Positions 21,865 through 28,381 of a stretch of DNA of 42,845 nt are shown one piece after another. The notes beneath the pieces are model-generated. The model was not told the origin of the DNA and did no database searches. It saw only the letters and a program-made list of their open reading frames with translations. The position numbers were made by a program, and so were the translations under genes. This DNA is from Clostridia bacterium (GTDB lineage Bacteria; Bacillota; Clostridia; Christensenellales; Aristaeellaceae), in the NCBI GenBank assembly GCA_017532155.1, contig JAFXJP010000039.1, forward strand, positions 1-42,845. Direction: 5' to 3'. Numbering within the stretch: position 1 is the first letter of the stretch; every line of letters starts with the position of its first letter.

Positions 21865-22079
21865 CCCGCTTGTTTCGATGTAGCGAAACGGCGTTCCCCC
21901 GCAGGCGCTAACACACAATATCGTGGCAGGCCCGAAAGGCAACGCCGTTCGGGTGCGCGAAGTGCGCAGAAAAAGAGAGTGGAGATCATGGGATCGAGCT
22001 TGCTCGAATCCCTGAAATCCACTCTCTTTTTCGTATAGCCTGCCGAAATAAGTCAACTAAACATAGGCTTTCGGGTGGG
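21865..22079. repeat. Copy A of a roughly 214-bp dispersed repeat (inverted relative to copy B)
   Basis: The reverse complement of this segment aligns almost without gaps to 26836-27048. At the centre, 41 consecutive bases are identical (21967-22007 with 26906-26946), and outside it most positions match. Differences are often paired across small stems; for example, CGAA/TTCG here matches CGGA/TCCG in copy B. The segment contains one of the three 62-nt hairpins. Short ORFs across it are not credible. It lies between convergent rsmA and the ABC exporter genes. Confidence 0.9.
21970..22031. terminator. 62-nt bulged hairpin A, probable bidirectional terminator or structured RNA
   Basis: A perfect 14-bp outer stem (A5-GAGAGTGGA with its complement ending in T5) encloses an internal loop, TCA/TGA, a bulged T, GGGAT/ATCCC with a bulged A, and the palindrome CGAGCTTGCTCG. 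A-run and T-run ends would allow termination in both directions. It lies between convergent rsmA (+) and the ABC operon (-). Confidence 0.8.
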
Positions 22080-22236
22080 TTTTAGGGGAACGAAATCCGC
22101 CGCTGCCCTTTGGCAGATAAAGGCGGATGTAGTTCCAATGAGGCACAGAGTAAAGTGAACTCTCGTTCACTTTACGACAATGCCGAATTGTGTACTGGCT
22201 TTGGCTTTCCAAAGCCGCCTCCCTAACGTCTCCCTA
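22080..22236. other. Gene-free hairpin cluster between the repeat and the ABC operon
   Basis: No credible gene. Three inverted repeats are seen: ATCCGCC/GGCGGAT (22095-22101 with 22122-22128) enclosing CTGCC/GGCAG; a perfect 11-bp stem GTAAAGTGAAC/GTTCACTTTAC (22150-22175); and GGCTTTGG/CCAAAGCC (22197-22216). The last is the counterpart of the hairpin at 26803-26822, so the larger repeat probably continues here, with about 120 bases of extra sequence present only in this copy. Confidence 0.7.
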
Positions 22237-24216
22237 TCATTCTAACTCAAACGCGCCCGTATACAGCTGGTAATACTGCCCCTTCTCGGCGATCAGCTGC
22301 TCGTGGTTGCCGCGCTCAATGATGCGGCCGTGATCGAGCACCATGATGACGTCAGAATTTTGAACGGTGGACAAGCGATGCGCAATGACAAATACCGTGC
22401 GACCCTGCATCAGGCTGTCCATGCCGCGCTGCACCAGCGCTTCTGTGCGCGTATCAATGGAAGAGGTCGCCTCGTCCAGAATCATGACCGGCGGATCAGC
22501 CACCGCCGCGCGGGCGATGGAAATCAGCTGACGCTGTCCCTGACTGAGACCCGAGCCATCGCCTGTCAGCAGTGTGTTGTAGCCTTCCGGCAAGCGCGTA
22601 ATAAAGTCATGCGCGTTGGCCAGCTTTGCCGCTGCAATGCATTCCTCATCCGTCGCATCCAGCTTGCCGTAGCGGATGTTCTCCATCACCGTGCCGGTAA
22701 ACAGATTCACATCCTGCAGCACAACGCCCAGGGAGTGACGCAGATCGGCCTTTTTGATCTTGTTGATGTTGATGCCGTCGTAGCGAATCTTGCCATCCGC
22801 AATATCATAGAAACGGTTGATCAGATTGGTAATGGTCGTCTTACCTGCGCCTGTTGCGCCGACAAAGGCCACCTTCTGGCCGGGCTTGGCATACAGCGAA
22901 ATGTCGTGCAGCACAGGCTTGCCTTCTTCGTAGGCAAAGTCTACATTCTCCAGCACCACATCGCCCTCGAGCTTTTTATAGGTCAGCGTGCCATCCTGAT
23001 GCTGATGCTTCCATGCCCACAGACCAGTCTTCTTGTCGCTCTCAACCAGCTGACCGTTTTCTTCTCTGGCGTATACCAGGGTTACGTAGCCGTCATCCGT
23101 TTCGGGCTTTTCATCCAGCAGACTGAAGATGCGCTCGGCGCCGGCCAATGCCATGGCCACAAAATTGATCTGCTGCGCAACCTGATTGATGGGCTGCATG
23201 AAATTGCGGGAAAGCGTCAGGAACGAGGCAATCGCGCCCAGCGTCAGCACATTAAAGCCGCTCGTCAGACTCAGATTGGTCACGCCGCCGATCGCCATCG
23301 CGCCGCCGATAATCGCCAGCACGACATATTCGATGTGGCCGAGGTTATTGTTGACCGGGCCCAGAATATTGGCAAACTTATTGGCATTAGTGGCGTTTTC
23401 GCATAGTTCGTCGTTGCGGCGGTCAAATTCGTCTTTGGCTTTTTCTTCGTGATTGAAGACCTTTACGACCTTCTGGCCGTTGATCATCTCTTCAATATAG
23501 CCGTTCACGCTGGCCAGAGATTTTTGCTGCGCCATGAAGAAGCCAGCGCTCTTGCCGCCGATCTTAGCCGTTACCTTCATCATCAGGAAAGCGCAAAGGA
23601 TGACAATCAGCGTCAGCCATACGCTGCAGGCCATCATGGAGATGAACACAACCACCAGCGAAATGGCCGAGGAGAACACCTGCGGCAGCGACTGGCTGAC
23701 CATCTGGCGCAGCGTGTCGGTATCGTTGGTGTAATAGCTCATCACCGCGCCATGCGTGTTGGTGTCAAAATAGCGGATGGGAAGCGTCTGCATATGCTCA
23801 AACATCTGATTGCGGATGTTTTTGAGAATGCTGTGCGATACCACCGCCATGATGCGCATCTGACAGTAGGAAGCGAGAATTGCCAGCACATACAGCCCGG
23901 CCATCTGCAAAATGGTACCGATAAGTCCCGCATAATCTACCGTCTCGCCGGCCAGTGCCTGGGCAAGCATGGGCGTGATATGGTTATCGATGATGCGGCC
24001 AAGGAACGTAGCGCTGCTGACGCTGGCAATGGCGCTGATCACAATGCAGCACAGCACCAGGATCAGCTGCGGCCAGTAGGGCTTCAGATATGTCAGCAGA
24101 CGAAGCGCCGTCTTTTTATTGATCGGCTGGCGAGGGCCCATCATGCGCGGGCCACGGCCAGGACCGCCCATCGGCGGACGCATGGGGGCAGACTGCTTAT
24201 TCTGCGTATTACTCAT
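22237..24216 (-). CDS. ABC exporter half-transporter with the catalytically competent NBD
   Basis: The 659-residue protein has a six-helix exporter membrane domain followed by an ATPase domain. The NBD has Walker A GATGAGKT, signature LSQGQ (Gln in place of the second-position Gly of LSGGQ), Walker B ILDEATSSID with the catalytic Glu, and switch His in IAHRLSTVQ. A charged insert sits between membrane domain and NBD (DDGYVTLVYAREENGQLV, and on through a KHQHQDG segment), as in one subunit of several heterodimeric pumps. The N-terminus is an odd Met/Pro/Gly/Arg-rich cytoplasmic tail. The start is the ATG at 24216 with GGGAGG upstream; it overlaps the partner gene by 8 bases. Substrate is unknown, probably drugs or peptides. 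Confidence 0.93.
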   Translation of the reverse strand: MSNTQNKQSAPMRPPMGGPGRGPRMMGPRQPINKKTALRLLTYLKPYWPQLILVLCCIVISAIASVSSATFLGRIIDNHITPMLAQALAGETVDYAGLIGTILQMAGLYVLAILASYCQMRIMAVVSHSILKNIRNQMFEHMQTLPIRYFDTNTHGAVMSYYTNDTDTLRQMVSQSLPQVFSSAISLVVVFISMMACSVWLTLIVILCAFLMMKVTAKIGGKSAGFFMAQQKSLASVNGYIEEMINGQKVVKVFNHEEKAKDEFDRRNDELCENATNANKFANILGPVNNNLGHIEYVVLAIIGGAMAIGGVTNLSLTSGFNVLTLGAIASFLTLSRNFMQPINQVAQQINFVAMALAGAERIFSLLDEKPETDDGYVTLVYAREENGQLVESDKKTGLWAWKHQHQDGTLTYKKLEGDVVLENVDFAYEEGKPVLHDISLYAKPGQKVAFVGATGAGKTTITNLINRFYDIADGKIRYDGININKIKKADLRHSLGVVLQDVNLFTGTVMENIRYGKLDATDEECIAAAKLANAHDFITRLPEGYNTLLTGDGSGLSQGQRQLISIARAAVADPPVMILDEATSSIDTRTEALVQRGMDSLMQGRTVFVIAHRLSTVQNSDVIMVLDHGRIIERGNHEQLIAEKGQYYQLYTGAFELE

Positions 24217-25960
24217 CTGCCTCGCCTCCCTTCGTCTGAGATTCATATACCTCGCGATAAATCTCGCAGCGGGCAAGCAATTCATCATGCGTGCCGCAGT
24301 CAGCGATTTTGCCGTTGTCCAGCACCACGATCATATCGGCGTCCTGCACAGAGGCGACGCGCTGGGCAATGATAATCTTGGTGGTTTCGGGAATGTAGCT
24401 GCGGAAGCCCTCGCGGATGAGCGCATCCGTGCGCGTGTCTACCGCGCTGGTAGAGTCGTCCAGGATGAGGATCCTGGGCTTTTTCAGCAGCGCGCGGGCG
24501 ATGCACAGGCGCTGCTTCTGACCGCCGGATACGTTGGTGCCGCCCTGCTCAATCCATGTATCATAGCCATCCGGGAAATCCTGGATAAAGGTGTCTGCCT
24601 GCGCCAGGCGGCAGGCCTCGATCAGTTCTTCATCCGTAGCATTTTCATTGCCCCAGCGCAGGTTATCCTTGATGGTGCCGGAGAAGAGCTCGTTCTTTTG
24701 CAGCACCATGGCCACGCTGTCGCGCAGGGCGACCAGGTCATAATCGCGGGTATCCACGCCGCCTACCTTGACAGAGCCGAAGGTCGGATCATACAGGCGC
24801 GGGATCAGCTGTACCAGCGTTGATTTGCCCGAGCCTGTGCCGCCCAGAATGCCTACCGTAGCGCCGGAAGGAATGTGCAGGTCAATATCGCTCAGGCAGT
24901 CTTTTTCGCTGCGCAATGCATAGCTGAAGCGCACATCCTCAAAGTCAATCGAGCCGTCCTTGACCGTCTGCACGGCATTTTCGGGCGATTCGATGTCCGT
25001 CTTTTCATCCAGGATTTCCACAATGCGCTGCGCAGAGGCGCGGCTCATGGTGAGCATCACGAAGATCATGGAGACCATCATCAGGCTGGAGAGAATCTGA
25101 ATCACGTAGGTGATCAGGCTCATCAATTGGCCTGTGGTCATGCCGATATCCGGGTTATTGCCCGAAGCGATGATCATCTTGGCGCCCAGCCAGCTGATCA
25201 GAAGCGTGCACACATAAATGCAGCCCATCATCAGCGGAGAGTTGAGCGCGAGGTTCTTTTCGGCCTTGGTGAAGTCATCGTAAATAGACTGCGAAATACC
25301 GTTGAATTTATCCACTTCATAATCGCCGCGCACAAAGCTCTTGACCACGCGCACGCCGCGCAGATTTTCCTGCACCACGCTGTTGAGCTTATCGTAGGTT
25401 TTAAACACGCGGCGGAAAATGGGATGGGTTCTGGTCATGATCAGGTACAATCCGCCCACCAGCACGGGCAGACAGGCCAGGAAGATCAGCGACATCTTCG
25501 CATCGATGCTCAGTGCCATCACGGTAGAGAAAATCAGCGTCATGGGCGAACGCACGGCCATGCGGATGATCATCTGGAAGGAATTCTGCACGTTGGTTAC
25601 GTCCGTCGTCAGTCGCGTAATAATCGACGAGGTCGAATATTTATCAATATTGGAAAATGAAAAGTTCTGGATGTTATAGTACATGTCATGACGCAGATTC
25701 CGTGCAAAACCACTGCCGGCCGTCGCCGCCATGCGGCCGCCCATTACGCCGAAATACAGCGAAATGAAAGCTGCGGCCAGCAGCAAGCCGCCCGTCATCC
25801 AGATATAGCGCATATTGCCCGCTTCAATACCGCGGTCAATCAGCGTTGCCATCAGCATGGGGATCATCACTTCCATCGCTACCTCGCCCACCATAAACAG
25901 CGGCGTCGCGATGGCATGCTTCGCATACTGACGAATGCATTTTGCCAGGCGTTTAATCAT
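24209..25960 (-). CDS. ABC exporter half-transporter with a degenerate NBD
   Basis: The 583-residue partner has a six-helix exporter domain and an NBD with intact Walker A GGTGSGKST and signature VSGGQ. Its Walker B is ILILDDSTSAVD (Asp where the catalytic Glu should be), and its switch residue is Gln (IIAQRVASVQ) instead of His. This is the pattern of the non-hydrolysing site in heterodimeric exporters such as BmrCD, LmrCD or TM287/288. It pairs logically with the downstream gene, whose Walker B is intact but whose signature is altered. Start: ATG at 25960 with AGGAGG nine bases away, overlapping the marR-type gene by 8 bases. Confidence 0.93.
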   Translation of the reverse strand: MIKRLAKCIRQYAKHAIATPLFMVGEVAMEVMIPMLMATLIDRGIEAGNMRYIWMTGGLLLAAAFISLYFGVMGGRMAATAGSGFARNLRHDMYYNIQNFSFSNIDKYSTSSIITRLTTDVTNVQNSFQMIIRMAVRSPMTLIFSTVMALSIDAKMSLIFLACLPVLVGGLYLIMTRTHPIFRRVFKTYDKLNSVVQENLRGVRVVKSFVRGDYEVDKFNGISQSIYDDFTKAEKNLALNSPLMMGCIYVCTLLISWLGAKMIIASGNNPDIGMTTGQLMSLITYVIQILSSLMMVSMIFVMLTMSRASAQRIVEILDEKTDIESPENAVQTVKDGSIDFEDVRFSYALRSEKDCLSDIDLHIPSGATVGILGGTGSGKSTLVQLIPRLYDPTFGSVKVGGVDTRDYDLVALRDSVAMVLQKNELFSGTIKDNLRWGNENATDEELIEACRLAQADTFIQDFPDGYDTWIEQGGTNVSGGQKQRLCIARALLKKPRILILDDSTSAVDTRTDALIREGFRSYIPETTKIIIAQRVASVQDADMIVVLDNGKIADCGTHDELLARCEIYREVYESQTKGGEADE

Positions 25961-26417
25961 CGCCTTTTTCCTCCTTGCTCAGTTCCTTCAGATTATTTTT
26001 CATCTTGTCCAGGCTTGCAAACAGCGTCTGCAATTCTTCTGCCTCAAACCCTTTGCGCAGCGCCATTTCAAATCGCAGATGATCTTCGTCCATCAGCCGC
26101 TTGATCTCTTGCGATCTTTCCGTCAGCACCAGCTTTTTAAGCCTGGCGTCATGCATGACGCTCTGCCGCTCAATCAACCCTTTTTGCACCATCAGGTTAA
26201 TCACCTTGGAAGCTGTGGAACGCGTAATGCCAAAGCGCGTTTCCAGATCACGCTGGTATACGTCCTCTCCTGCTTCTGTGCGATCACCAATATAGCCGAT
26301 AATCCAGCTGTTGGTGCCTGTTATCGCTTCAATACACTTTTTATGGGAGTACTGCTCAAAATAACGCCGTGTCAAATTGGACAGCGTTCGCAGTTCCACA
26401 CCCAACGCTCTATCCAT
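25953..26417 (-). CDS. MarR family transcriptional regulator
   Basis: The 154-residue winged-helix protein is the first gene of the exporter operon, so it probably represses its own operon and responds to a ligand the pump exports (inference). The DNA-binding part is visible as YQRDLETRFGITRSTASKVI, the wing as MVQKGLIERQSVMHDARLKKL, and the dimer helices at both ends. The frame is open to 26468, but CGGAGG six bases before the ATG at 26417 sets the start. Its stop overlaps the first ABC gene by 8 bases. Confidence 0.92.
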   Translation of the reverse strand: MDRALGVELRTLSNLTRRYFEQYSHKKCIEAITGTNSWIIGYIGDRTEAGEDVYQRDLETRFGITRSTASKVINLMVQKGLIERQSVMHDARLKKLVLTERSQEIKRLMDEDHLRFEMALRKGFEAEELQTLFASLDKMKNNLKELSKEEKGDD

Positions 26418-26456
26418 GGCAACCTCCGATTTAAAATGTACGCCGTCAAACTGTAC

Positions 26457-26494
26457 GACATGCAACATTTTATCATATCATTGCAGCATGTCAA
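26457..26494 (-). promoter_or_regulatory. Promoter and candidate operator of the marR-ABC operon
   Basis: On the minus strand TTGACA (26494-26489) is 16 bases from TAAAAT (26472-26467). Inverted arms GACATGC (26457-26463) and GCATGTC (26486-26492), with an inner TGCAA/TTGCA pair, enclose the -10 and touch the -35. That is where a MarR dimer would block polymerase. Confidence 0.6.
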
Positions 26495-26510
26495 TATTTC
26501 CTTGTGACTG

Positions 26511-26538
26511 TTCACACATTTTTAAGTTTTTGTATAGA
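26511..26538 (+). promoter_or_regulatory. Possible divergent promoter for the small membrane protein
   Basis: TTCACA (26511-26516), a 16-base spacer, then TATAGA (26533-26538), 50 bases before the ORF start. Confidence 0.35.
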
Positions 26539-26588
26539 TTGTCTGTTCTTGGCGCAAACTACCTGCATCAACCATGGGAGGCCAGGTT

Positions 26589-26783
26589 ATGCGCGGAGCT
26601 GTCTGTATTCTTTTATCCTTCATGCTGATCTTCACATTGTCCCTTTGCGATCCGCCCGAGGATGCGCGATTGTCTGCCTGGTGGGGGCTTTTGTTCCCTC
26701 AGATGTTTATGCGCGACAACGGAAGCGAGCAGGTGGTGTTTGCTTGGCCGCTGATGATGCGGGTATTCAGGCTGTTTGGGTGA
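26589..26783 (+). CDS. Small membrane or secreted protein, unknown (64 aa)
   Basis: ATG with GGGAGG (26576-26581) seven bases upstream. The product begins MRGAVCILLSFMLIFTLSLC, a signal-like hydrophobic helix ending in Cys, but the preceding Leu makes a poor lipobox. The rest is DPPEDARLSAWWGLLFPQMF and an amphipathic, Trp/Met/Phe-rich tail. It is divergent from the marR-type gene across 171 bases, which may make it a target or accessory of that regulator (inference). No family is recognised. A hairpin follows ten bases after the stop. Confidence 0.5.
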   Translation: MRGAVCILLSFMLIFTLSLCDPPEDARLSAWWGLLFPQMFMRDNGSEQVVFAWPLMMRVFRLFG

Positions 26784-26792
26784 GGGGAACGT

Positions 26793-26831
26793 TCGAGAGG
26801 GCGGCTTTGGAAGGCCAAAGCCCCCTCTCGA
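26793..26831. repeat. Long hairpin before repeat copy B
   Basis: TCGAGAGGG pairs with CCCTCTCGA (26793-26801 with 26823-26831), and inside it GGCTTTGG pairs with CCAAAGCC across AAGG: 17 pairs with one bulged C. It follows the small ORF and has no T tract. Confidence 0.8.
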
Positions 26832-26835
26832 GCTC

Positions 26836-27048
26836 ACCCCGAAAGCCTGCGTTGGGTTGCGTTGTTTTGGCAGGCGATATGAAAAAGAGAGTGGATCTCA
26901 GGGACTCGAGCAAGCTCGATCCCATGATCTCCACTCTCTTTTTCTGTGCGCTTTGCGCACTCGGACGGCGTTGCCGTCCGGGCCTGTCGTGTTATTGTGT
27001 GGTAGCGCCCGCGGGGGAACACCGTTTCGCTTGGGCGAAACGAGCGGG
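26836..27048. repeat. Copy B of the dispersed repeat (inverted relative to copy A)
   Basis: It matches the reverse complement of 21865-22079. Sub-hairpins inside include the 62-nt element, GTGCGC/GCGCAC (26946-26960), CGGACGGC/GCCGTCCG (26962-26980) and CGTTTCGC/GCGAAACG (27023-27042). ORFs of about 100 codons run through it on both strands, but they follow the palindromes and are taken as spurious. Confidence 0.9.
26882..26943. terminator. 62-nt bulged hairpin B, probable bidirectional terminator or structured RNA
   Basis: The same element as at 21970-22031 in opposite orientation, with three base differences, all in the inner part of the hairpin. A5 and T5 ends. It lies between the small plus-strand ORF and the minus-strand DUF2804 gene. 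Confidence 0.8.
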
Positions 27049-27186
27049 CTCCGCCGACTATTGCGCCGCCGCAGCGGCGTACCCTTCCGCTCGTTTTTGC
27101 CGCAGCAAAAACGGCGACACCAACGAACAAGACACCAAAGAGGCAGTCCGCGTAGCGTAGCTCCGCGGGTTTGCTTTAGCAAACTG
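27049..27186. other. Tiled short hairpins between repeat copy B and hairpin C
   Basis: No credible gene. Consecutive inverted repeats: CGCCGC/GCGGCG (27064-27079), CGTTTTTGC/GCAAAAACG with loop CGCA (27092-27113), CCGCG/CGCGG (27148-27168) and GTTTGC/GCAAAC with loop TTTA (27169-27184). Confidence 0.65.
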
Positions 27187-27248
27187 AAAAAGGTGAGAGA
27201 AGTCAGCGGAGCGAGCTTGCTCGCATCCGTGATCTTCCTCACCTTTTT
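27187..27248. terminator. 62-nt bulged hairpin C, diverged relative of A and B
   Basis: Exactly 62 nt, like A and B. The outer 11-bp stem AAAAAGGTGAG/CTCACCTTTTT is different but fully paired. Then come TCA/TGA, a bulged G, CGGA/TCCG, a bulged A and GCGAGCTTGCTCGC. The core CGAGCTTGCTCG, ATCC and the TCA/TGA pair are kept. Confidence 0.8.
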
Positions 27249-27302
27249 CAATCAGACTGTCGCGTCAATAACGCAGCCAACAAACGGAACGACTGGTTCT
27301 TT

Positions 27303-27329
27303 GGTACTTTCTTGACGCAAGAAAGTACC
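27303..27329. repeat. Perfect 11-bp hairpin near the DUF2804 stop
   Basis: GGTACTTTCTT pairs with AAGAAAGTACC around GACGC. No T tract follows on either strand, so termination is uncertain. It lies 17 bases beyond the stop of the minus-strand DUF2804 gene. Confidence 0.7.
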
Positions 27330-27346: not shown

Positions 27347-28381
27347 TTACCACTTATTATGCACTTTCTCGGCAAAGCCGATCATGTCCTTCACCTGAAT
27401 CACTTCGCCGTCATCCAGCACAGCCTGACCGGTAAAGCGGCCGAAGACCTGATGCTGGTCGGAGCAGATGAGCTTCACATCTGTGCAGGAAGCGCGGTCG
27501 ATGATGGGTACGAAGTCCATTTCAAAGCGCTTATCATCGCTTGTAAAGGTCCAGGGCTTGAGGTAATCCTCCTTGCCATCCTTCATGGGAATGTTGAAGG
27601 TCACCTGGCTTAATTTATGCGCAATACCATCGCAGAAGAGCATGTTTTCGCTGGCGGCGGAGGTGTCGCCAAAGCCGTAGCCGATGTTAAAGCCAAAGCT
27701 GCGGCCCTGCTGAATGCCGGAGGCCGAGCCCCAGTACCAGGTGTTCTCATATGTCCACACGCCGCGTCCCCAGTCCAGCACGCCAAAGGCGGTGGCGGGG
27801 GAGAAGAGATACTCTCGGCCGTCAAAGCACACCACGCCCTCTGCCTGTAGGCAGTTGATCTTCTGGTTGTAATAGAAGGCCTTGGGCGCATTCTGGAAGG
27901 GCGTGACGATCACCATGCTGTCGCGCGGGGCATTGCGCAGCTCGATATCAAAGGCGAGGGGCTTGCCGTCGCGGAAATTTTCCATGCTGCCATACAGGCT
28001 GCGCTTCACGCCGTCGTTGATGAAATGCATCTCATATCCTTTGCCCTTGACGTGAATATCGCCCTTTTCGCTGGTAGGCGGCAGATTACGCTTGCCCAGG
28101 GGAAGAAGTCCAATGCGGGAGGTTGTCTGCTCCCAGGGCTTTTCAAAGTCCAGGAGCGATATGCTGTCCATGCTCATGTAGCCGTTGTCAGCGATGGTGA
28201 GCGCAAGGCCGAAGCAATCGTTGCCGATGTAGTAGTAATCCCACTCCTTGATGCGCAGGGGATGGGCGGCGATGCGCTTGCGGTCGTACTGCTGAATGAG
28301 ATGGGTGGCATAGCCGGGCTCGTTGAGGCGGCCATTTTCATCGTGCAGGTAGCCGGGCTTAACAATGCGGTGCTGAGACAT
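27347..28381 (-). CDS. DUF2804 family protein
   Basis: The 344-residue protein carries the signature region of DUF2804: FGVLDWGRGVWTYENTWYWG, then SASG, FNIGYGFGDTSAASENMLF and CDGIAHKL. The family is widespread, predicted to be beta-rich, and has no assigned activity. There is no signal peptide or membrane helix. Start: ATG with AAGGAGGG seven bases upstream. It begins 13 bases after the HAD-MazG gene stop and is the last of three minus-strand genes with mscL, so co-transcription is likely. Its link to those genes is unclear. Confidence 0.85.
   Translation of the reverse strand: MSQHRIVKPGYLHDENGRLNEPGYATHLIQQYDRKRIAAHPLRIKEWDYYYIGNDCFGLALTIADNGYMSMDSISLLDFEKPWEQTTSRIGLLPLGKRNLPPTSEKGDIHVKGKGYEMHFINDGVKRSLYGSMENFRDGKPLAFDIELRNAPRDSMVIVTPFQNAPKAFYYNQKINCLQAEGVVCFDGREYLFSPATAFGVLDWGRGVWTYENTWYWGSASGIQQGRSFGFNIGYGFGDTSAASENMLFCDGIAHKLSQVTFNIPMKDGKEDYLKPWTFTSDDKRFEMDFVPIIDRASCTDVKLICSDQHQVFGRFTGQAVLDDGEVIQVKDMIGFAEKVHNKW

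What the first reader, a model, noticed from the sequence alone, without database searches (positions are those of the whole stretch)
21970..27248. Family of 62-nt bulged hairpins with covarying stems between convergent genes
Three elements (21970-22031, 26882-26943, 27187-27248) are exactly 62 nt. All start with A5 and end with T5 and share TCA/TGA pairing, a bulged base, GGA/TCC, a bulged A and the core CGAGCTTGCTCG. Hairpin C has a different outer stem (GGTGAG/CTCACC in place of GAGAGTGGA/TCCACTCTC), a C-G for a G-C in the GGGA/TCCC step, and G-C for T-A beside the core, all still paired. Conserved bulges and length are more than a plain terminator needs. All copies lie in gaps between convergent genes, so bidirectional termination is the simplest role. 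A protein-bound structured RNA or DNA element is possible.
Basis: partly seen in the sequence, partly recalled or inferred. Interest (0 to 1): 0.75.

Follow-up and report, generated by a model that had tools for sequence, protein, structure and literature searches.

The report
Repeated gene-end folded terminator element
The three hairpins are arms of a larger folded DNA repeat that sits about 100 bases after many genes of a gut bacterium, probably stopping transcription there, and relatives keep the same shape with a quite different sequence.

Summary
Three 62-nt A5...T5 hairpins lie exactly where stated, with real compensatory changes. They belong to at least 106 such hairpins at 65 sites in this 2.0-Mb genome.

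Each hairpin (HP62) is one arm of a four-way junction, P1 enclosing HP62, P3 and P4, in a modular unit that starts at a gene's stop codon. Where a stop could be assigned, HP62 usually lies 91-117 nt after it (66 of 86). All 41 close pairs point the same way, one unit per gene, mostly between convergent genes.

The design, but not the sequence, recurs in other species and a second genus.

Best reading: HP62 is a bidirectional intrinsic terminator inside a dispersed, exchangeable, REP/BIME-like gene-end element. Support is indirect: at 2 of 10 orthologous gene ends read in a relative, a plain terminator stands directly after the stop instead, and simple scans do not flag HP62, whose stem is interrupted. 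P1 spans past the T run and G-U shows no strand bias, so termination does not explain the fold. DNA-level structure or mobility is the novel possibility. No RAYT-type transposase was found (genome 82.5% complete). No transcript data.

The parts
21970..22031 (-). HP62-A: 62-nt A5..T5 hairpin. In the sense of the served gene (22237-24288, minus) it reads A5-stem-G(CAAG)C-stem-T5; CTTG is on plus
21925..22045 (-). Four-way junction of unit A: P1 of 7 bp (21925-21931 with 22038-22044) enclosing HP62, P3 (about 21954-21968) and P4 (about 21931-21953)
   Evidence: folded (z -8.7 as DNA, -9.9 as RNA); sub-coordinates read from the sequence
21865..22236 (-). Repeat copy A, from next to the stop codon of the ABC-transporter gene 22237-24288 through module I and the junction to the 'CGTTTCG..CGAAAC' arm; single unit
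   Evidence: (query 26-397 matched by a near full-length copy elsewhere)
26882..26943 (+). HP62-B: 62-nt hairpin, left (minus-oriented CTTG) member of a pair
26868..26990 (+). Four-way junction of unit B: P1 of 7 bp (26869-26875 with 26982-26988), HP62, P3 (26946-26960), P4 (26962-26980)
   Evidence: z -9.1 as DNA, -9.2 as RNA
26784..26840 (+). Module I of unit B (arms 26784-26801 and 26823-26840), beginning next to a stop codon at 26781-26783
   Evidence: (I3)
27187..27248 (-). HP62-C: 62-nt hairpin with GGTGAG outer stem, right (plus-oriented CTTG) member of the pair
27140..27263 (-). Four-way junction of unit C: P1 of only 4 bp in the fold (27144-27147 with 27256-27259), HP62, P3 (27169-27184), P4 (27148-27168)
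   Evidence: z -8.8 as DNA, -7.7 as RNA
27303..27329 (-). Module I of unit C: hairpin GGTACTTTCTTG/CAAGAAAGTACC between junction C and the stop codon of the DUF2804 gene 27347-28381
   Evidence: (I4)
26991..27139 (.). Centre joining units B and C: spacer and short arms (for example CGTTTCGCTTGGGCGAAACG and CGTTTTTGCCGCAGCAAAAACG)
   Evidence: sequence
22237..24288 (-). Gene served by unit A: ABC transporter (PF00664, PF00005); stop 205 nt from HP62-A
27347..28381 (-). Gene served by unit C: DUF2804 protein (PF10974); stop 98 nt from HP62-C. Its 93% identical orthologue in G007 has a short hairpin without a clean T run and no unit

Best explanation
A dispersed, modular gene-end element. In the sense of the gene it serves, one unit reads: stop codon, purine-rich spacer, hairpin I, P1 5' strand, HP62 (A5-stem-loop-stem-T5), P3, P4, P1 3' strand, then central arms. 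Two units often meet head to head between convergent genes. Mechanism, inferred: RNA polymerase leaving the gene makes HP62 about 100 nt after the stop and terminates at its T run. Because HP62 is nearly palindromic with A5 before and T5 after, it also stops polymerase from the opposite gene, so a pair insulates convergent genes. The unit takes the place of an ordinary terminator and is exchanged between gene ends by recombination or transposition. Shown: sequence anatomy, covariation, position, orientation, the four-way fold in several species, presence/absence and occupant turnover at orthologous gene ends. Inferred: termination, the exchange mechanism, any role of P1, P3 and P4.
For: Copies: 106 distinct hairpins at 65 sites, 41 pairs and 24 singles. 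Orientation: 41 of 41 close pairs here and 11 of 11 in G007 are minus then plus. Position: a served gene was assigned for 86 of 106 hairpins, 66 of these at 91-117 nt; in G007 for 35 of 44, 30 of these at 90-120 nt. Covariation in HP62: 90.6% of cells paired, 138 compensatory cells against 40.6 shuffled, 0 of 500. Junction: P1 complement of 8 nt or more in 68 of 105 units, against a mean of 35 of 105 with partners swapped among copies and 1 of 105 shuffled; P3 and P4 in 112 of 146 units against 4 of 146 shuffled; fold with a P1-closed junction of three or more branches in 81 of 106 against 21 of 106 with shuffled flanks, and in G007 26 of 44 against 10 of 44. Same design with other sequence in G063, a second genus (22 of 25 against 8 of 25), G004 (6 of 6 against 1 of 6) and G008 (3 of 6 against 0 of 6). 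Terminator role: no other terminator-like hairpin between stop and HP62 in 66 of 71 genes; of ten G007 gene ends read whose own-genome orthologue has a unit, two have a plain terminator directly after the stop (L297, L309) and one a terminator after a remnant (L316). Turnover: at 15 orthologous gene ends both species have a unit, yet HP62 identity is 0.65-0.87, medians against own-genome paralogues being 0.70-0.77.
Against: No transcript data. Two simple terminator scans do not flag HP62 in the window; both ask for an uninterrupted stem, which HP62 lacks. P1 closes across the T run, so a transcript ended there cannot form the junction; the fold needs another explanation. 20 of 106 hairpins had no served gene within 450 nt by my simple gene caller. 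The junction fold fails the test in 24 of 106 own copies (one more not scored), and the shuffled control still reaches it in 21 of 106. G003 gives 1 of 3, the same as its control, and G210 0 of 1. P1 of window unit C is only 4 bp in the fold. Only 17 of 114 hairpins pair at all nine outer-stem positions in the fixed register used. Two of the 15 orthologous HP62 pairs (0.86, 0.87) are well above the paralogue median. Of the ten G007 ends, L311 has a hairpin without a clean T run, four carry partial or variant units, one shows no terminator by the scan and one ran off the locus. The genomes are fragmented MAGs.
Confidence: 0.62

Rival explanations
1. The unit is primarily a DNA structure: a non-autonomous mobile or recombinogenic element whose single strand folds into the four-way junction recognised by an unknown host or transposon enzyme; the terminator is a passenger that makes insertion at gene ends harmless.
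For: P1 pairs across the T run. G-U against A-C mismatches in HP62 show no strand bias: 39 against 32, and 75 against 77 G-U in folds of the two strands. Presence/absence and occupant turnover at orthologous gene ends. One G007 pair joins genes that lie on different contigs here. Folds well with DNA parameters.
Against: No Y1 transposase in this genome (the genome is 82.5% complete; other transposase families were not sought). No target duplication or free form shown. No match in the phage and plasmid collections. Gene conversion between repeats could give the same turnover.
Confidence: 0.2
2. A structured RNA: the read-through 3' UTR or a processed 3' sRNA folds into the junction and acts on stability or binds a protein.
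For: Compensatory changes in HP62 and many fully paired stem variants in P3 and P4; fixed orientation to the gene; very stable RNA fold.
Against: No excess of G-U over A-C on either strand. P1 needs transcription past T5. No Rfam family at gathering score and none above gathering score in a permissive search of three loci.
Confidence: 0.1
3. Only ordinary bidirectional terminators, kept palindromic by mutation bias (quasi-palindrome correction) and copied by gene conversion; the other arms are passengers.
For: A-tract/CTTG/T-tract hairpins of similar form turn up singly in other bacteria (some of those hits may be chance). Template-switch correction can make compensatory changes without selection (recalled general knowledge).
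Against: Same order and co-occurrence of P1, P3 and P4 with HP62 in two genera with unrelated sequence. Persisting internal loops and bulges in subfamilies.
Confidence: 0.12

Closest known systems
REP / BIME (repetitive extragenic palindromes, bacterial interspersed mosaic elements) with RAYT (PMC2817692: abstract and outline seen; PMC3733652: passages seen)
   Same: About 100 or more intergenic palindromic copies per genome, inverted arrangement, preference for convergent and 3' positions, proposed roles in termination, species-specific sequence.
   Different: Unit hairpin is 60-66 nt with A5/T5 rather than 20-40 bp; it is embedded in a four-way junction within a several-hundred-nt unit; no GTAG/CGTC tag was noticed (not formally scanned); no Y1 transposase detected.
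Bidirectional intrinsic terminators of convergent genes (recalled)
   Same: A tract, stem, T tract, near palindrome at gene ends.
   Different: Interrupted stem not flagged by simple scans; repeated as a family about 100 nt after stops; enclosed by P1 with two further arms; flanked by other conserved modules.
MITE-type or other dispersed intergenic repeats (Correia, ERIC and similar; recalled, not tested)
   Same: Short dispersed non-coding repeats with inverted symmetry.
   Different: No terminal inverted repeats with target duplication shown; the unit begins at the stop codon and is oriented to the gene.

Membership tests
Intrinsic (bidirectional) terminator | Stable stem followed by a T run in the direction of transcription, on both strands | tested here: met
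   A5/T5 and stem in all three window copies
Intrinsic (bidirectional) terminator | Recognised by a simple terminator scan (uninterrupted stem, short loop, T run) | tested here: not met
   the three window hairpins are not among the 13 sites, nor flagged by my scan
Intrinsic (bidirectional) terminator | Located downstream of genes with no other terminator-like hairpin before it | tested here: met
   66 of 71 genes; 66 of 86 at 91-117 nt
Intrinsic (bidirectional) terminator | Transcripts end at the T run | not testable with these tools
   no RNA data
REP/BIME | High-copy extragenic palindrome, often in inverted arrangement | tested here: met
   106 hairpins, 41 pairs all minus-plus
REP/BIME | Short 20-40 bp palindrome | tested here: not met
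   60-66 nt extents
REP/BIME | GTAG or CGTC tag at one end | not tested
   the ends seen are GAAAAAG/CTTTTTC-like; no formal scan was made
REP/BIME | Associated RAYT (Y1 transposase) | tested here: not met
   PF01797: 0 matches in own genome; 5 of 14 control genomes ring; the genome is incomplete, so absence is not certain
Known structured RNA (Rfam 15) | Match at or above a family's gathering score | tested here: not met
   0 matches in the window; none above gathering score in the permissive search of L111, L269 and L289

The most novel reading that the evidence does not exclude
A lineage-wide class of gene-end element whose single-stranded DNA folds into a conserved four-way junction carrying its own bidirectional terminator. 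It spreads or is swapped between gene ends by an unknown enzyme, independent of RAYT, while its sequence turns over completely between genera.
Probability: 0.25. Interest if true: 0.82.

Novelty: new variant of a known kind. Interest (0 to 1): 0.63.

Why it matters
If right, many genes of these gut Clostridia end in an exchangeable terminator cassette rather than in individually evolved terminators. That gives a natural system to test how repeated palindromes spread, why they gather between convergent genes, and whether a folded DNA junction rather than an RNA is what is kept. It may also explain assembly breaks: repeat copies lie at the starts of several contigs.

Tried and rejected
Rejected: known RNA family. 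RAYT-driven REP in the strict sense. Phage or plasmid origin: copy A had no match among phages and copies B-C none among plasmids (each query was tried in one collection only); two isolated pattern hits in viral contigs were not followed up. One-strand RNA selection: the G-U against A-C test gave no asymmetry. Strictly fixed 62-nt length and universal bulges. A first gene call by ORF length gave misleading neighbour orientations and was replaced by a codon-usage caller. The MAFFT alignment A1 misaligns stems of unequal length, so covariation was counted on the 39 distinct sequences among 43 hairpins of 64 nt, out of 125 hairpins with a clear extent. The first branch counter was faulty; its folds were read by eye and recounted, which takes the better of two flank settings for real and shuffled alike. 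Orthologues: one search gave 14 best-hit candidates in G007 without an assigned hairpin; I read ten and one more (it carries a unit with a divergent loop); two candidates under 50% identity and one cut by its locus end were not read. One further candidate pair with units in both species was dropped for 36% identity. Literature: ten searches; five returned nothing, and by title and abstract start I saw no description of such an element in the other listings. The library is open-access only, so this does not show that it is unpublished.
Full report
WHAT IS THERE. The three hairpins are at the stated coordinates and are exact. Each folds with RNA z-scores of -7.8, -6.6 and -7.4. They are cores of a longer repeat: 21865-22075 and 26838-27048 are inverted copies, 85% over 211 nt, and a 401-base query around hairpin A has 64 matches in the window's own 2.02-Mb, 62-contig, 82.5%-complete genome (40 of 85 first-look candidates scored). 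A stem pattern with two mismatches gives 13+14 matches against 0+0 for its control. The covariance model R1, built from 53 copies, gives 144 matches in this genome at E<=0.01 on both strands (150 of 1022 candidates scored). In the window plus the 54 fetched stretches it gives 202 matches at E<=0.05, which I reduced to 106 distinct hairpins by keeping the better strand. The number is a lower bound.

ORIENTATION AND PLACE. The 106 hairpins fall at 65 sites, 41 close pairs and 24 singles. All 41 pairs have the CTTG-bearing strand minus on the left and plus on the right, and so have the 11 close pairs among 44 hairpins of G007. With a codon-usage gene caller, 36 of 65 sites lie between convergent genes (25 pairs, 11 singles), 11 lack a gene call on one side, at contig ends, and 18 were called otherwise; among 195 adjacent gene pairs without the repeat in the same stretches only 10 are convergent. 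In the sense of the gene it follows, each such hairpin reads A run, stem, CAAG-type loop, stem, T run. A served gene within 450 nt was assigned for 86 of 106 hairpins, 66 of them at 91-117 nt, and for 35 of 44 in G007, 30 of them at 90-120 nt. The sequence right after the stop codon is G-rich from the first base (G 57%, A 26% over 12 positions in 66 genes; background G 24%, A 33% in 178). In the window, A serves the ABC-transporter gene 22237-24288, C serves the DUF2804 gene 27347-28381, and B follows a stop at 26781-26783 that closes a small ORF seen (an inference; my caller did not call it and no family match was obtained for it).

COVARIATION OF THE HAIRPIN. On 39 distinct 64-nt copies (30 from this genome, 9 from G007; 27 pairs) 90.6% of cells pair, 19 pairs show changes on both sides and 138 cells are compensatory; shuffles give 78.6%, 12.1 and 40.6, and none of 500 reaches the observed values. 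'Further pair types' was not special (84 of 500 shuffles reach it). Slid registers give at most 39 compensatory cells. Across 114 distinct hairpins, 62 different outer-stem 9-mers occur; 79.4% of outer-stem positions pair against 61.2% with arms swapped, though only 17 of 114 pair at all nine positions in this fixed register. Related copies inflate such shuffle tests.

THE HAIRPIN IS ONE ARM OF A JUNCTION. Downstream of HP62 in gene sense come two further hairpins, P3 and P4, both found in 112 of 146 units against 4 of 146 shuffled, and then a strand complementary to one just before HP62 (P1). P1 exists in two main forms, GCGGCAGT/ACTGCCGC and CGGCAGGC/GCCTGCCG. A complement of 8 nt or more is present in 68 of 105 units, in a mean of 35 when partners are swapped among copies, and in 1 of 105 when shuffled. 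All three window units fold into P1[HP62, P3, P4] with both RNA and DNA parameters, with a 7-bp P1 in A and B but only 4 bp in C. In minimum-energy folds, a junction with three or more branches and a P1 of 5 bp or more appears in 81 of 106 own units (shuffled flanks 21 of 106) and in 26 of 44 G007 units (10 of 44).

OTHER SPECIES. R1 found nothing in 56 of 60 genomes searched; the four with matches were this genome (87 under the stricter filter), G007 (58), G004 (6) and G008 (4). A looser pattern over 308 genomes of the family finds matches in 35, with many only in this genome, G007, G004, G008, G063 and G179 (counts include overlapping hits, and the listed G179 matches are near-identical to one another and, by eye, not palindromic through the outer stem). 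G063, of another genus, has a hairpin family of unrelated sequence in the same design: P1 GGGCAC/GTGCCC, an HP62 with A4/T4 and CTTG, P3 and P4 (25 hairpins in the 20 fetched stretches), with the junction in 22 of 25 (8 of 25 shuffled). By the listing, 17 of 25 have a gene reading towards the T side of the CTTG strand at 154-215 nt; the other 8 do not. G004 shows the junction in 6 of 6 (1 of 6 shuffled), G008 in 3 of 6 (0 of 6), G217 in 2 of 3 (0 of 3; one not scored), G199 in 1 of 2 (0 of 2), G003 in 1 of 3 (1 of 3) and G210 in 0 of 1 (0 of 1). Thus the shape is kept where the sequence is not, in five species of two genera with some weight and thinly elsewhere.

EXCHANGE. Fifteen orthologous genes (69-98% protein identity) have a unit in both this genome and G007, yet their HP62 sequences are 0.65-0.87 identical, while medians against own-genome paralogues are 0.70-0.77; two of the 15 (0.86, 0.87) are clearly above the median. 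At several sites the two species carry different unit types. Of ten orthologues in G007 without an assigned R1 hairpin that were read, two have a plain terminator directly after the stop (L297, L309), one a remnant and then a terminator about 100 nt on (L316), one a hairpin without a clean T run (L311, the orthologue of the gene served by C), four carry partial or variant units (L304, L312, L313, L317), one shows no terminator by the scan (L317, another gene) and one ran off the locus (L299) (scan). One G007 pair joins genes that lie on different contigs here, which may be rearrangement or misassembly.

HOW IT MOST LIKELY WORKS. HP62 has the form of an intrinsic terminator on both strands, and no other terminator-like hairpin lies between stop and HP62 in 66 of 71 genes (19 of 51 background gene ends have one within 130 nt). 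Neither simple scan flags HP62 itself, since its stem is interrupted. The most economical reading is a transferable gene-end cassette that ends transcription of its gene and shields a convergent neighbour. This is inferred from form and position; no RNA data were available. Two results do not follow from termination: P1 closes across the T run, and neither strand shows the excess of G-U over A-C expected of a selected RNA (39 against 32). They point to DNA-level structure or to a mechanism acting on both strands, and keep open a mobile-element reading.

COMPARISON. The closest known kind is REP/BIME (PMC2817692, abstract and outline; PMC3733652, passages). Shared: copy number, intergenic palindromes, inverted arrangement, convergent gaps, species-specific sequence. 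Not shared: hairpin length (60-66 nt against 20-40 bp) and a RAYT (no PF01797 match). I therefore do not file it as a REP; it works like one in distribution. No Rfam family matches.

LIMITS. MAGs, incomplete and broken at these very repeats; a home-made gene caller; related copies inflate shuffle-based covariation; copies were found through a CTTG-centred model, so units with other loops are missed.

Noticed in passing
L117, L123, L124, L128, L148 (centres of units): Some unit centres carry a further palindromic insert, CTACACCTCATCC..CTTCCCCTTGAGGGGAAG..GGATGAGGTGTAG or parts of it, which I recall as a common repeat of Clostridia; not searched on its own.
   Followed up: no
window 26991-27139 and pair interiors: The centre between two units itself looks like a branched fold (arms CGTTTTTTCTGCGGAAAAAACG, CGCCGCTGCGGCGGCG, CGTTTCGCCGCAGCGAAACG joined by GAGCGGG/CCCGCTC); read by eye, covariation there was not counted.
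   Followed up: no
upstream of HP62 in some units, e.g. gene sense GGCTGCGTTATTGACGCGGCAGTC: The P1 5' strand can instead pair with the sequence just upstream, so P1 and this small hairpin exclude each other, as in attenuators.
   Followed up: no
contig starts of C5, C9, C43, C48, C52, C53, C54: Several contigs of the genome begin within or next to a copy of the repeat, consistent with assembly breaks at it.
   Followed up: no
window 22237-25960: Two adjacent ABC-transporter genes on the minus strand lie between the inverted repeat copies A and B.
   Followed up: partly
G179, C30:72132-72201 and others: Another genus of the family has a near-identical repeat with a GGGGGAGCTTGCTCCCCC core at several places; it matched the pattern but by eye lacks a palindromic outer stem.
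   Followed up: no
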